NCBI RefSeq assembly: GCF_001874145.1
Contig: NZ_MPCX01000002.1
Span: forward strand, 124,001-188,000
Source of the DNA: Lacinutrix sp. MedPE-SW
GTDB lineage: Bacteria > Bacteroidota > Bacteroidia > Flavobacteriales > Flavobacteriaceae
DNA length: 64,000 nucleotides
Direction: 5' to 3'
Positions 33,523 through 38,940 of this stretch are shown in pieces; position 1 is the stretch's first letter; the number at the start of each line of letters is the position of its first letter. The notes under the pieces were generated by a model. That model did not search any database. It was not told where the DNA came from and saw nothing but the letters and a program-made list of their open reading frames with translations. Position numbers and translations under genes: made by a program.

Positions 33523-34230
33523 ATGATAACGACATCAAACCTTTCAAAAACATATAATAACAATACCGTTTTAAAAATTGATAATTTAGAAATACCTAAA
33601 GGACAAAGTTTTGGTCTTGTAGGAAATAACGGAGCAGGAAAAACAACATATTTTAGTTTGCTACTAGATTTAATAAAACCTACTACAGGACATATTAAAA
33701 ATAACGATGTGTTAGTAAGTGAAAGTGAAGATTGGAAACCATTTACTTCTGCCTTTATAGACGAAAGTTTTTTAATAGGTTACCTAACTGCCGAAGAGTA
33801 TTTTTATTTCATAGGAGAACTTCGTGGTCAAAACAAACAAGATGTAGATAATTTGGTTGGTGAGTTTAAAGATTTCTTTCATGGCGAAATTCTTCAGCAA
33901 AAAAAATACCTTAGAGATTTAAGTAAAGGAAACCAAAAGAAAGCAGGAATTGTTGCAGCCTTAATAGGTAATCCAGAAGTTATAATTCTTGATGAACCTT
34001 TTGCAAACCTAGACCCAACAACACAAATTAGGTTAAAAGTTATAATTAAAGATTTAGCAGAAAAGCGAGGCGTTACCGTTTTAATTTCTAGTCATGATTT
34101 ATTACATGTAACAGATGTTTGTGAGCGTATTGTAGTGTTAGAAAAAGGAGAAGTAGTTAAAGATTTAGCAACAAGTGAAGCGACTTTAAAAGAACTTGAA
34201 GCGCATTTTACTGGTAGTGTTGAGGTTTAA
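33523..34230 (+). CDS. ABC transporter ATP-binding protein
   Basis: A 235-residue ATPase. The Walker A motif is GNNGAGKTTYF near residue 33, the signature LSKGNQKKAGIVAAL near 128, and Walker B VIILDEPFANLDP near 150. The H-loop is SSHDLLH. It pairs with the permease-like gene 24 nt upstream. Its last codons (VEV, then stop) lie inside the first copy of a 108-bp direct repeat, so the native 3' end of this gene may have been altered by that repeat. Confidence 0.92.
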   Translation: MITTSNLSKTYNNNTVLKIDNLEIPKGQSFGLVGNNGAGKTTYFSLLLDLIKPTTGHIKNNDVLVSESEDWKPFTSAFIDESFLIGYLTAEEYFYFIGELRGQNKQDVDNLVGEFKDFFHGEILQQKKYLRDLSKGNQKKAGIVAALIGNPEVIILDEPFANLDPTTQIRLKVIIKDLAEKRGVTVLISSHDLLHVTDVCERIVVLEKGEVVKDLATSEATLKELEAHFTGSVEV

Positions 34231-34326
34231 TTATTTTATTTACGGTTTTCCCGTAATAAATTTTTTCCCCAATAATACCTCTGGAGATTTTGTTACTTTT
34301 ATAAATCAATACACGCCATAAATATG
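34219..34326 (+). repeat. Direct repeat copy A, 108 bp
   Basis: Runs from the last codons of the ABC ATPase gene through its stop and an A/T-rich leader, ending exactly on the ATG at 34324. Copy B at 35093-35200 has the same length and differs at 5 of 108 positions by my alignment. A small inverted repeat (TACGG, CCGTA) lies just after the stop. Confidence 0.9.
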
Positions 34327-35104
34327 ATTTATAAATTCTTTATTAATAAAAGAGGTTGGTCACTATCCACAATGTGAAAATGCTTTATGGAATGGCCCAC
34401 GTTTTGACAATGACTCGTTCGCTTTTAATGGTAAGTTTGGACCTTTAAAAGGAAATCCTGCGCTTCCACAACCAACTCTTCATAAAAAAGCCAATTTAAC
34501 TGATTATTTGTCTGCTATGGATAATAATAGGTATTTAACAATATCTCCAAGTTTATATGTTTTTTTAAAACCTTTTTTAAATACACATCAAACATGGGAT
34601 ATAAAAGTTTCTAATGATGTTTATAAATTTGATAGAGGAAAAAGTGAGTATCTTTTTAAAGCGGGTGCAAAACAAAAATTACATGATTATAAAATTTTAC
34701 ACATATCTTATCCTAAAAGAAATTTTATAAACTTTGAAAAAAGTGTCTTTTTTACTGATATAAAAGATAATTATTTGAAAAACATGAATATGGAAGGAAT
34801 TTCTGAGTCTTACATAGAGAATCCAACTCATAAAAAAATAGAAATTACTTCTGATAATGACTATAGATCGCTGATTGAAAAAATGAAGCATATTAAGCCT
34901 AAATCAGTTGTCATCCCTAGAAAAATAGTTTGTAATTTAAATTATAATAAAGATGAGATATTTAGACTTATAACACCTATAAATAATATGTCTGGCTATT
35001 ATGTTTCCGCAGAATTAAAAAAGAAGATCGAAGAAATAGGGTTTACAGGCATGGAATTTAAATTATTAAAAAATTTAAATCCAAGCATCAAGGTTGAGGT
35101 GTAA
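34324..35104 (+). pseudogene. Immunity-protein-like gene broken by one extra base
   Basis: From the ATG that ends repeat A the frame runs only 17 codons. If one A is removed from the AAAA at 34348-34351, the frame becomes MIYKFFINKEVGHYPQ and continues without a stop to 35104, about 259 residues. The body contains NPALPQPTLH, SPSLYVFLKPF near the middle and the C-terminal pattern SGYYVSAELKKKIEEIGFTG. That ending resembles Imm11/Imm43-like immunity proteins of polymorphic toxin systems, a weak match. A sequencing error, a phase-variable run or a true pseudogene are all possible. Without the correction, only a remnant starting at TTG 34508 or ATG 34517 could be translated. Confidence 0.6.
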
Positions 35105-35200
35105 TTATTTTATTTGCGGTTTTCCCGTAATAATTTTTTTTCCAAATAATACCTCTGGAGATTTTGTTACTTTTATAAATCAATACACGCCATAAATATG
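35093..35200 (+). repeat. Direct repeat copy B, 108 bp
   Basis: Starts in the last codons of the broken immunity-like gene (again encoding VEV then stop) and ends exactly on the ATG at 35198 of the next gene. It lies 874 bp downstream of copy A. Both copies therefore cover stop codon, leader and start codon. Confidence 0.9.
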
Positions 35201-35680
35201 GACAAATACAAGAAAAATAAAACTCCAATAATGGAAAAAAACAAAATAAATATATTCCAAAGTAAGTATTTAGACTTATTTACCGATTTTGGATATGGAG
35301 TAAATTCATTAAGTGATATTTTACAAAGCTTAGGATATAATATTGAGAATCTTAATTCTTCTTCAGGAAAAACAGAAGCTATTGATGCAATAGGCCAACT
35401 TTTAGAAAAAGAAATTATTTACGTTTTACATTGGGGGAAACACCATAATATTATAAAAAATTTAGATTTAAACTATAAACAAACTTTAATATTTATAAAT
35501 GAAATATGGTTTGAAAATGCAAACTATTCTGATTTTTTAGATATGGTAACTTTTAAATATACCGATTGGTATTATAACAAATTAAAAGAAGCTGGAATAG
35601 ATGTTAACACAGATTGGGGGTTGTTTGGCAAAGAATTTGTCCCAAATATAGAAGAATGGATTAAAGAGAAAAGACCGTAA
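35198..35680 (+). CDS. Uncharacterised soluble protein behind repeat B
   Basis: A 160-residue protein with no signal peptide or membrane segment. It starts at the ATG that closes repeat B; ATG 35231 (residue 12) is an alternative. It is acidic and aromatic-rich, with ALHWGKHHNI-like and TDWYYNKLKEAGIDVNTDWG stretches near its middle and end. I do not recognise the family. Its position directly behind an immunity-like gene with the same leader suggests it could also be an immunity or accessory protein, but that is inference. Confidence 0.6.
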   Translation: MDKYKKNKTPIMEKNKINIFQSKYLDLFTDFGYGVNSLSDILQSLGYNIENLNSSSGKTEAIDAIGQLLEKEIIYVLHWGKHHNIIKNLDLNYKQTLIFINEIWFENANYSDFLDMVTFKYTDWYYNKLKEAGIDVNTDWGLFGKEFVPNIEEWIKEKRP

Positions 35681-35685
35681 ATAAA

Positions 35686-36222
35686 ATGAAAGTAAAAAGT
35701 ATATTTTGCATTATAATATTGATTATTAATTCATCATGTTTTTCTCAAAATAATAGAATTGAGAATAAGTTAATGGAGTGCTATTATCAATCCTTTCAAG
35801 ACAATGGAATTGAAATTAAAAAGCTAATTCATGATTATGAAAACCTTTTAATTAATGAAGGTTTCTTAAAAGATAATAGTGCAAAAAGTTATATAACTTT
35901 TTTACAGAATTTTTCAAATCAAAACATATATACTCCATCAAAATTTTTTTGTGTTGAATCCCAAAATATAAAAAAATTGAATGAAGTTAATTACTTAGAA
36001 TGTAGAAAATTAGTACTAGAAGACTTTAAACATACCAATACTTCAAAATTAGAAAGTATCGAAAAAGCTGTTATAAATAATTCTAATCCACAAAATGTAG
36101 TTAAAGACATGCTAAAAGTATTAACTAAAGAAGATTTTGAAATTGAATATTATAAGAGACAAGCTTTTTTAGTTTTTTGTTTAATTGATACTGAAGCTGG
36201 TCTTAAAAAAAGAGATGATTAA
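35686..36222 (+). CDS. Uncharacterised exported protein
   Basis: A 178-residue protein, 5 nt after the previous gene. The N-terminus MKVKSIFCIIILIINSSCFS is a signal peptide. SSCFSQ could be read by signal peptidase I (after FSQ) or as a weak lipobox ending at the Cys. The mature part is helical and charged, with two further Cys residues (FFCVESQ, YLECRKL). No family recognised. It probably belongs to the same accessory islet, since the next gene is a conserved housekeeping gene (sprE). Confidence 0.6.
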   Translation: MKVKSIFCIIILIINSSCFSQNNRIENKLMECYYQSFQDNGIEIKKLIHDYENLLINEGFLKDNSAKSYITFLQNFSNQNIYTPSKFFCVESQNIKKLNEVNYLECRKLVLEDFKHTNTSKLESIEKAVINNSNPQNVVKDMLKVLTKEDFEIEYYKRQAFLVFCLIDTEAGLKKRDD

Positions 36223-36381
36223 AGTATAAATTGATAAATTGTAATATACAGTCTTAGTCTATTTTTAAGCATTTTCTCTTGTTTTCTACCAAAAACACAA
36301 AAAGATGCTTATTTTTACGTGCTTATCTATGTATATAACAATATTCTTAATAGATTATAGTTATGTATTAGACTAAAAATC

Positions 36382-38940
36382 ATGACGTTGAAAATACCTA
36401 AAAAACTCATAGTACTTGCAGTATTTACTGCTTTAATAGCAACAAGTTGCTCAAGAAAAAACGATAGTTTTCTTAACAGGAGCTACCATGCTATAGGTGC
36501 AAAATATAATAAACTTTATAACGGCAATAATGCCTTAGCAAAAGGCCAGCAAACACTTAACGACGGTTACCAAGACAACTATTGGGAAATTTTGCCAATA
36601 GAGCGTATGCAAGTCACCGAAGAGATTACATTACCTGGACAAACAAAAAATGCCGATTTTGAGCGTGCCGAAGAAAAAGCAGTAAAAGCCATTCAAAAAA
36701 ATGGTATGAATATTCAAGGTAAAGAACGAAACCCACAAATAGATGAAGCGTATTTACTATTAGGAAAAGCACGTTATTTCGACCAGCGTTTTATTCCAGC
36801 TTTAGAAGCGTTTAACTACATATTATATAAATACCCAGCAAGTAGTAATATAAATCAAGCAAAAGTTTGGCGAGAAAAAACAAACATGCGCTTAGAAAAC
36901 GATGAGCTGGCAATAGTTAATTTAAAACGTTTATTAGAAGAAGAAGAACTTGAAGATCAAGATTTGGCAGATGTAACTTCTACATTAGCACAAGCATACA
37001 TAAATTTAAAATCTTTAGATAGCGCATTAACACAAATAAAAATAGCCTCTCAAGAAACAAAAAAAGCGTTCGAAAAAGGAAGATATAACTTTATAAAAGG
37101 TCAATTATATAATGCATTGCAAGAAAAAGACAGTGCAAATATGGCTTTTGATGAAGTTATAGATTTAAACCGAAGCATTCCTCGTAAATATCTAATTAAC
37201 GCATACATTGAAAAAACGAAGAATTTTGATTACGAAAACGGTAACAAATTAGAGTTTCAAGAATTACTTACGCGTTTAGAAGAAGAAAGAGAAAACAGGC
37301 CGTTTTTAGATAAAATTTATCATCAAATTGCGCAGTATCACTTAAAAACGAATAATGACTCTTTAGCAACAATTTACTACAATAAGTCACTGCGTACCAA
37401 TTCGCCAGATAAAATTTTGGTAGCAAAAAACTACGAGACGCTTGGTGATATGAATTTCGATAAAAACAACTATAAAACGGCTGGAGCATATTACGATAGT
37501 ACAATGACGCGTATGGTTTTAAATAGTAAACCATATAGAGTTATAAAACGAAAAAGAGAAAATTTAGACGATGTTATTTATTACGAAGATGTAGCACAAA
37601 AAAACGATAGTATATTAAGAATTGTTGCCATGCCAAAAGCAGAACGCTTAGCTTATTTTAACAACTATATAGCAAAACTAAAAGCCGAAGCAGAAGCAGA
37701 AAAAGAACGTATAGCAATAGAAACTCAAAAAGCTGGATTAGCAACTAATAACGCGGGTGATACAAATAATAGTAATTTTATAAAGCCAGCAAGTGGTTTG
37801 CCACAAGGTTCATCGTTTTACTTTTATAACGATCAAACAGTTGCATACGGTAAAAATGAATTTACTCGTATTTGGGGAGATAGAGAATTAAAAGATAATT
37901 GGCGTTGGTCTAGCACAAAATCTGCAGTGGCGATAGAAAATGCCTCAAATACTTTTCAAGCAGACGTAGCACAAGATGAATTATTTGATGTTAAAACCTA
38001 TTTAGATAAACTTCCAAGTAGTGATGCCGAGATAAAAGATATTGTAAAAGAACGTGATTATGCATATTACCAATTAGGCTTAATTTATAAAGAAAAATTT
38101 AAAGAATATGAGCTTTCAAAAGGTAAATTTCAAGCACTTTTAAATAACAAACCAGAAGAACGCTTAGTGCTACCTTCTAAGTACAATTTATTAAAAATGT
38201 ACGAGATTTTAGGTAGAGAAGCCGAAGTTAATATACTTAAAAACGAAATCATAACTAATTATCCAAACTCTAGATATGCTAGTATATTAAGTAATCCAGA
38301 TCTAGCTTTAGCGAAAGATGAAAACAGTCCAGATAGTGTTTATGAAGCAATTTACAGTAAATTTGAAAATCAAAAATTTTCTCAAGTAATTATAGAAACC
38401 GAAAAAAATATTAAAGCTTTTGAAGGTGATGCCATTGTACCAAAACTTGCATTATTAAAAGCATCTGCAATTGGGCGTTTATATGGTTTTGAACAATATG
38501 TAAAAGCAATAAGTAATGTTGCAATTGCCTATGCTAATACAACAGAAGGTTTACAAGCACAGATGATTTTAGATAAATCTATAGAAAACTTGAGAAATCC
38601 AGATTTTTTAGATGACTCTGCTGCTACGAGCGCAAAAGTAGTATATCAATTTACTAACGCAACACCAGAGCAACTAAAGGCATATAAAGAAATAGTAGAT
38701 AAAGCGGCAACAAAAATGAATTATAACCGCTTATCTACATCAATAGATATTTATAGTCCAGAAAAAACGTTTGTAGTCGTTCATGGTTTACGAAGCATAG
38801 AAAGTGCAAAAGGATTTACATCTTTGTTTGAAGAAGAGGAACAATCAAAGTTATCTAAACCATTTTTTGGAATATCTTCAGAGAATTACAGGATTCTTCA
38901 AATTCACAAAAACTTAGAATCGTATTTAACAAACCAATAA
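36382..38940 (+). CDS. sprE: SprE/PorW, type IX secretion and gliding lipoprotein
   Basis: An 852-residue lipoprotein with the lipobox LIATSC (Cys23), so it is anchored in the envelope. The mature N-terminus (FLNRSYHAIGAKYNKLYNGN) and the TPR-like helical pairs along residues 110-450 and 540-720 match SprE/PorW. SprE/PorW supports the type IX secretion system and gliding in flavobacteria. The neighbours, bactofilin and then the atp operon, are also those expected for this locus. Its C-terminal half ends in a domain with FVVVHGLRSIESAKGF. Confidence 0.88.
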   Translation: MTLKIPKKLIVLAVFTALIATSCSRKNDSFLNRSYHAIGAKYNKLYNGNNALAKGQQTLNDGYQDNYWEILPIERMQVTEEITLPGQTKNADFERAEEKAVKAIQKNGMNIQGKERNPQIDEAYLLLGKARYFDQRFIPALEAFNYILYKYPASSNINQAKVWREKTNMRLENDELAIVNLKRLLEEEELEDQDLADVTSTLAQAYINLKSLDSALTQIKIASQETKKAFEKGRYNFIKGQLYNALQEKDSANMAFDEVIDLNRSIPRKYLINAYIEKTKNFDYENGNKLEFQELLTRLEEERENRPFLDKIYHQIAQYHLKTNNDSLATIYYNKSLRTNSPDKILVAKNYETLGDMNFDKNNYKTAGAYYDSTMTRMVLNSKPYRVIKRKRENLDDVIYYEDVAQKNDSILRIVAMPKAERLAYFNNYIAKLKAEAEAEKERIAIETQKAGLATNNAGDTNNSNFIKPASGLPQGSSFYFYNDQTVAYGKNEFTRIWGDRELKDNWRWSSTKSAVAIENASNTFQADVAQDELFDVKTYLDKLPSSDAEIKDIVKERDYAYYQLGLIYKEKFKEYELSKGKFQALLNNKPEERLVLPSKYNLLKMYEILGREAEVNILKNEIITNYPNSRYASILSNPDLALAKDENSPDSVYEAIYSKFENQKFSQVIIETEKNIKAFEGDAIVPKLALLKASAIGRLYGFEQYVKAISNVAIAYANTTEGLQAQMILDKSIENLRNPDFLDDSAATSAKVVYQFTNATPEQLKAYKEIVDKAATKMNYNRLSTSIDIYSPEKTFVVVHGLRSIESAKGFTSLFEEEEQSKLSKPFFGISSENYRILQIHKNLESYLTNQ

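What the first reader, a model, noticed from the sequence alone, without database searches (positions are those of the whole stretch)
34219..35200. Two 108-bp repeats that each run from a stop codon to the next start codon
Copies A (34219-34326) and B (35093-35200) are the same length and differ at only 5 positions in my alignment. Each begins in the last codons of an upstream gene (both end VEV-stop) and ends exactly on the ATG of the following gene. This is what a gene-plus-leader cassette would look like. Recombination between the copies would delete the intervening gene and place the next gene directly behind the ABC transporter. It could be a small exchangeable immunity or accessory locus.
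Basis: partly seen in the sequence, partly recalled or inferred. Interest (0 to 1): 0.78.

Follow-up and report, generated by a model that had tools for sequence, protein, structure and literature searches.

The report
Orphan immunity genes with toxin scars
Two nearly identical 108-base stretches in a marine bacterium look like the leftover start and end of a lost antibacterial toxin gene, each now sitting in front of an immunity-like gene of the kind that protects against such toxins; a readable example of a known way in which bacteria keep shields after losing the weapons.

Summary
The repeat is real: 108 bp, 5 substitutions, two copies in a 3.04-Mb genome. It is not best read as a mobile leader. 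It lies in a ~2-kb island between an ABC-transporter gene and a TPR gene. No match to the island's genes was found at this junction in 84 distinct relatives, including one whose flanking proteins are 93-99.6% identical. The genes resemble immunity genes: immA is distantly Imm11-like and frameshifted near its start, with relatives behind AHH-nuclease toxins; one immB relative overlaps a lipoprotein-like, presumed toxin, gene. No AHH or tox2 domain was found in the genome. Each repeat reads as a toxin promoter (TACGGTTTTCCCGTA) fused to the toxin's last ~17 codons (moderate support). The left edge is a 9-bp identity, GTTGAGGTG, shared by the ABC and immA 3' ends. Reading: a toxin-deletion scar duplicated at microhomology, then trimmed. 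Known kind, unusually readable. No strain-level exchange was shown.

The parts
33523..34230 (+). Native ABC-transporter ATPase gene; its last codons GTT GAG GTT TAA open copy A
   Evidence: PF00005 E=3.5e-21; G010 orthologue 99.6% identical, ending GTTGAGGTGTAA
34219..34326 (+). Repeat copy A
34231..34267 (+). Putative toxin-gene promoter remnant holding TACGGTTTTCCCGTA (34241-34255)
   Evidence: same kind of motif 77-135 bp upstream of 3 of 9 toxin or presumed toxin genes examined; 4 of the 5 motif sites in 336,618 bp of fetched loci lie there
34268..34321 (+). Putative 3' remnant of an AHH-type toxin gene (PNNTSGDFVTFINQYTP, stop); the stop codon starts 5 bases before the immA ATG
   Evidence: the two repeat copies rank 4 and 5 of 2312 stop-ended peptides against five tails found before Imm11-like genes; weaker or negative
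34324..35104 (+). immA: distant Imm11-like immunity gene; start codon and long frame do not agree (frameshift near the 5' end)
   Evidence: homologues; 5 of 7 alignment members match Pfam Imm11, the window member does not
35093..35101 (+). GTTGAGGTG: 9-bp identity between the immA 3' end (VEV of KVEV) and the ABC 3' end; left edge of copy B
   Evidence: homologues end KVEVIY (L076), KIEVINK (L078), RIEVIY (L223); G010 ABC ends GTTGAGGTGTAA
35093..35200 (+). Repeat copy B (same promoter remnant, motif 35115-35129, and same toxin tail 35142-35195)
35196..35231 (+). Last 11 codons and stop of a second presumed toxin gene (tox2): IWTNTRKIKLQ, stop
   Evidence: 8 of 11 identical to the remnant IWTKTRSIKFQ* in front of an immB homologue (L081); the 10-residue part scores 40, next best of 65,102 window 10-mers 27
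35231..35680 (+). immB: immunity-like gene of an unnamed family; homologues start about here, the mechanical ORF starts at 35198
35686..36222 (+). Small secreted-protein-like gene (my reading of its N-terminus), no convincing family match, not found at this junction in relatives
34231..36270 (.). Whole island; in G010 53 bp stand in its place
36382..38940 (+). Native downstream TPR gene (called sprE in my scripts; the name is recalled, not from a call)
   Evidence: weak TPR matches; found beyond the ABC gene in 89 loci of 84 distinct genomes

Best explanation
The locus is a small orphan-immunity island left by two polymorphic-toxin modules. Module 1 was promoter - AHH-nuclease toxin - immA. 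An internal deletion removed the toxin and joined its promoter to its last ~17 codons, so that the promoter now sits in front of immA. The segment between GTTGAGGTG at the ABC 3' end and GTTGAGGTG at the immA 3' end (874 bp) was then doubled through this 9-bp identity, by unequal exchange or by illegitimate recombination of incoming DNA anchored in the ABC gene. In the second unit the body of immA and nearly all of a second toxin gene (tox2) were lost at a 5-bp identity, ATATG, which set the promoter-plus-tail scar directly before the tox2 tail and immB. Shown: the repeat, the empty site in relatives, the match of the tox2 tail, homology of both genes to genes found behind toxin or presumed toxin genes, no AHH or tox2 domain found in the genome. 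Moderately supported: identity of the tox1 tail and of the promoter. Inferred: order of events, that tox2 is a toxin, expression of the immunity genes from the scar, protection against neighbours' toxins.
For: Empty site: G010 has 53 bp in place of 34231-36270; none of 100 loci has a match to immA, immB or the third gene; 84 distinct genomes have 54-1203 bp between the two genes (median 134) against about 2150 here. immA relatives: 20 of 397 family genomes incl. own; AHH-positive ORFs directly upstream in 7 of 18 loci fetched (L075, L078, L208-L212), and an AHH match in a fragmented toxin region before an Imm11-like gene in same-genus L223. immB relatives: of 4 loci fetched, one overlaps a 591-aa lipoprotein-like ORF and one follows a remnant with a related tail. 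tox2 tail 8/11 identical, unmatched elsewhere in the window. tox1 tail rank 4-5 of 2312. Motif upstream of toxin genes. Own genome: 0 AHH and 0 tox2-domain matches. immA C-terminal KVEV resembles homologue ends.
Against: The tox1 tail is short. An HMM of 12 tails did not put it in its top 10; of nine matrix variants one ranked it 2nd of 50,014 and the others 15th to 2596th; pairwise shuffle tests gave fractions of 0.03 to 0.97 over 13 tails; the tail set was chosen after seeing the match. The motif stands at 10 other places in the genome, with 6 for the reversed control pattern on the same strand, and was missing from 6 of 9 toxin promoters. The window immA does not match Imm11, and of nine more homologues two match it, below cut-off. 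immB has no named family, and the presumed tox2 of L082 has no Pfam match. Two AHH toxin loci in same-genus G011 have neither an immA- or immB-like gene nor the motif. The order of events rests on one genome, and the left edge at GTTGAGGTG could also reflect import of a ready-made array.
Confidence: 0.7

Rival explanations
1. A genuine exchangeable cassette system: leader plus gene units inserted at a fixed site by a dedicated recombinase, as in integrons.
For: Identical block before two unrelated genes; insertion at a clean stop codon; only these copies in the genome.
Against: No recombinase among the 8 proteins of the region scanned with Pfam (the rest of the window was not scanned) and no tRNA within 28-42 kb; block edges coincide with short identities to flanking genes; no relative measured has these genes here.
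Confidence: 0.07
2. A conserved regulatory leader (RNA element or promoter) duplicated because it is needed in front of each gene, unrelated to a toxin gene.
For: The palindromic motif recurs in this genome, often between genes; copies kept 95% identical.
Against: No Rfam match; no RNA fold beyond shuffles (z -0.54); the 108 bp gave no match in 12 of 12 same-genus genomes and only a 38-base match in plasmids; the second half resembles toxin tails.
Confidence: 0.13
3. A ready-made immunity array from another bacterium, already with repeated scars, was joined to the ABC gene end at GTTGAGGTG; the duplication did not happen here. (This shares the scar reading and overlaps with the best explanation.)
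For: Tandem immunity arrays with toxin tails between genes exist elsewhere (L203: four Imm11-like genes, toxin tails before two of them).
Against: No donor with this block found in the places searched (searches used one exact word each); it needs the same microhomology as well.
Confidence: 0.25

Closest known systems
Orphan immunity arrays of Vibrio cholerae T6SS clusters (PMC5361080; passages and section 13 read)
   Same: Immunity genes kept after displacement of the toxin; the 3' end of a displaced effector shifted back in the array; homology-facilitated illegitimate recombination proposed
   Different: Here no active toxin heads the array, the host gene is an ABC transporter, and a toxin promoter seems to have been kept and duplicated with the tail; the authors argue against duplication for their arrays
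Orphan cdiA-CT/cdiI modules (PMC3150448; passages read)
   Same: Detached toxin 3' fragments without start codons in front of immunity genes
   Different: Those fragments generally encode a toxin region from a VENN motif on; here only ~11-17 codons remain
Imm11 / Tox-AHH polymorphic toxin systems (PMC3482391; table passages read)
   Same: Homologues of immA match Imm11 and stand behind AHH nucleases, the pairing listed there for Bacteroidetes, with Imm11 in heterogeneous poly-immunity loci
   Different: The window gene is too divergent to match Imm11 itself and its start is frameshifted

Membership tests
Imm11 immunity family (PF07791) | Profile match above the curated cut-off | tested here: not met
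   Window immA: no Imm11 match at E up to 1. 5 of 7 members of its alignment match at E up to 0.01; of three homologues scanned all are listed and one exceeds the cut-off (25.9 vs 22.1 bits); of nine more two match, both below cut-off
Imm11 immunity family (PF07791) | Encoded directly behind a Tox-AHH toxin in relatives | tested here: met
   AHH above cut-off in the ORF directly upstream in 7 of 18 loci fetched; in the other 11 loci none was shown, and only L077's upstream ORF was scanned
Orphan immunity locus | Immunity genes without the cognate toxin in the genome | tested here: met
   G000: 0 AHH matches, 0 tox2-domain matches (single 77-residue query), E up to 0.01; genome 99.99% complete
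Orphan immunity locus | Toxin 3' remnants in front of the immunity genes | tested here: met
   tox2 tail strong; tox1 tail moderate
Orphan immunity locus | The immunity proteins neutralise the toxins | not testable with these tools
   needs bench work
Integron-type cassette array | Integrase and attachment sites | tested here: inconclusive
   no integrase among 8 Pfam-scanned proteins of the region; the rest of the window and attachment sites were not examined

The most novel reading that the evidence does not exclude
The promoter-plus-toxin-tail scar is kept by selection as an expression unit: it places orphan immunity genes under the lost toxin's own control, so that the shield is made when toxins are in play, and the scar's 9-bp edge lets the unit duplicate and swap immunity genes within a population.
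Probability: 0.15. Interest if true: 0.6.

Novelty: new member of a known kind. Interest (0 to 1): 0.42.

Why it matters
How orphan immunity arrays grow is often modelled from end products. Here scars, edges and an empty sister site survive together, so a sequence of deletion, duplication at microhomology and trimming can be proposed base by base. If right, it suggests that a toxin's promoter can outlive the toxin and keep its immunity gene expressed. It also warns that 'leader repeats' before start codons may be toxin remnants.

Tried and rejected
RNA leader or riboswitch: no Rfam match, no fold beyond shuffles. Mobile leader elsewhere: 2 copies in the own genome only; 0 of 12 same-genus genomes, and the two matches among the other relatives (G053, G017) cover only 27-34 bases around the motif; 0 of genome contigs for one exact 20-mer, a weak test since a single exact word was used; plasmids gave one 38-base match; viral contigs gave 4 exact 18-mer matches that I did not study further. 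tRNA-linked island: no tRNA within 28-42 kb. Second half of the repeat from tox2 instead of tox1: rank 754 of 2312, no support. HMM of toxin tails: did not rank the repeat in its top 10. Solved structures: nothing useful for either family. immB in plasmids and viral contigs, and the tox2 domain in plasmids: none. The two AHH toxin loci of same-genus G011 (L221, L222) have no immA- or immB-like gene and no motif. L203 carries a 108-nt direct repeat of its own around its array, GC-rich and unlike ours; I take the equal length for coincidence. No structure prediction was run.

Full report
Observation. All five differences lie in the first half; the last 56 bases are identical. Behind copy A the ATG frame closes after 17 codons and the long frame lies one base over. 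Behind copy B the ATG is in frame, but the alignment with homologues supports a start 33 bases later.

Setting. The window lies in a flavobacterium. Four of its same-genus genomes have contigs equal in length to named contigs labelled Lacinutrix, and their sequence at this locus is identical, so the genus is inferred. The island stands between an ABC ATPase gene and a long TPR gene. 89 held both genes; 5 pairs were the same genome twice, leaving 84 distinct ones, with 54-1203 bp between the genes, median 134, 71 below 300 and 13 at 300 or more, against about 2150 here. None of the 100 had a tblastn match (E up to 1e-3) to any of the three island genes. The nearest, G010 (DUF5687 98%, ABC 99.6%, TPR 93% identical), has 53 bp in place of window 34231-36270. 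Some other relatives carry unrelated single ORFs here (G011, L160), so the junction tolerates insertion. Island GC is 0.251 against 0.29-0.31 in the flanks.

What the genes are. immA had no convincing family match, but weak relatives (5 of 397 family genomes incl. own) gave an alignment that found 20 of 397 incl. own. I fetched 18 loci from 17 of the 19 other genomes. In 7 loci the ORF directly upstream carries the AHH nuclease domain above the Pfam cut-off (L075, L078, L208-L212), several with lipoprotein-like N-termini (my reading of the sequences), one with RHS repeats. In L076 and L077 a toxin tail directly precedes the gene; the larger ORF further upstream in L077 matched DUF4056, not AHH. 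L203 holds four such genes in a row, with toxin tails before two of them. In the remaining 8 loci no toxin was identified; their neighbours were not scanned with Pfam. Five of seven alignment members match Imm11, the window gene does not, and of nine more distant members two match, below cut-off. Same-genus L223 has an AHH match in a region of fragmented frames followed by an Imm11-like gene, with a TACGG..CCGTA site 135 bp before the first, lipoprotein-like frame; that this frame is the start of the same toxin gene is inferred. immB has relatives in 5 other family genomes by profile, one of them weak; of four loci fetched, one (L082) overlaps the end of a 591-aa lipoprotein-like ORF that has no Pfam match, one (L081) follows a remnant with a related end, and two showed no such neighbour. 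That tox2 is a toxin is thus inferred from layout. The own genome has no AHH and no tox2-domain match, so both genes look like orphans.

What the repeat is. Directly before immB, bases 35196-35231 read IWTNTRKIKLQ-stop; the remnant before the immB homologue of L081 ends IWTKTRSIKFQ-stop. The ten-residue part scores 40; the next best of 65,102 ten-residue words in six frames of the window scores 27. The stop overlaps the homologue-supported immB start by one base. This is strong. The second half of the repeat reads PNNTSGDFVTFINQYTP-stop, the stop codon starting five bases before the ATG of immA, where relatives have toxin tails ending such as NPAKNLGEIADLINYP-stop or LTPGQLADLIVYP-stop. Among 2312 stop-ended peptides of the window the two copies rank 4 and 5 against five such tails; the position was fixed by the model but the tail set was chosen after seeing the match. 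Other tests were weaker: second of 50,014 with one matrix, 15th to 2596th with eight others, pairwise shuffle fractions 0.03-0.97, absent from the top 10 of an HMM. The first half holds TACGGTTTTCCCGTA (TGCGG in copy B). In 336,618 bp of fetched loci this kind of pattern occurs at 5 places: two before the toxin-like gene of L077, one before the AHH toxin of L208, one before the lipoprotein-like frame of L223, all 77-135 bp upstream, and one inside a gene (L080). Six of nine toxin promoters lack it, and the motif has 10 other places in this genome, against 6 for the reversed control. So the block is best read as toxin promoter joined to toxin tail, with the tail and promoter identities moderately supported.

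How the copies arose. The first nine bases of the repeat are coding on both sides: the ABC gene ends GTTGAGGTG in G010 and GTTGAGGTT here, and relatives of immA end in KVEVIY, KIEVINK or RIEVIY. This 9-bp identity explains the left edge and the 874-bp spacing as a duplication or an illegitimate join. At the right edge ATATG belongs both to the immA start (copy A) and to the tox2 tail (ATA TGG, copy B). A deletion at this 5-bp identity explains why identity stops at an ATG. The order of these steps is inference, as is the alternative that a ready-made array was imported.

Known or new. Orphan immunity genes with displaced toxin ends are described in V. cholerae, where homology-facilitated illegitimate recombination is proposed (PMC5361080, passages and section 13 read), and as orphan cdiA-CT/cdiI pairs (PMC3150448, passages read). 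Imm11 with AHH in Bacteroidetes, and in poly-immunity loci, is in PMC3482391 (passages read). In the listings I saw no title or abstract start describing a duplicated promoter-plus-tail scar; this covers one open-access library and only the papers listed. Other papers in those listings were not read.

Noticed in passing
own genome, L031-L041: The palindrome TACGG..CCGTA occurs at 11 places in the genome (22 rows on both strands, against 12 for the reversed control), one of them copy A and many of them between genes; some share their intergenic region with a second word like TTTTCGATGAAATACAC. Possibly a flavobacterial regulator site.
   Followed up: partly
34324-35104: immA is frameshifted near its 5' end although the remaining 257 codons are open; assembly error or recent loss cannot be told apart.
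   Followed up: partly
34219-34326 versus 35093-35200: All five differences are in the first 52 bases, none in the last 56 (Fisher p 0.023, post hoc); unexplained.
   Followed up: no
L203 6428-6535 and 10975-11082: An array of four Imm11-like genes in another flavobacterium is flanked by its own GC-rich 97% direct repeat of 108 bases.
   Followed up: partly
L080 (G257): Relatives of both immA and immB, neither behind a recognised toxin, lie about 5 kb apart in a different genus.
   Followed up: no
L204 (G068): Three neighbouring tandem Imm11-like copies with long repeats lie beside several leucine-rich-repeat-like genes.
   Followed up: no
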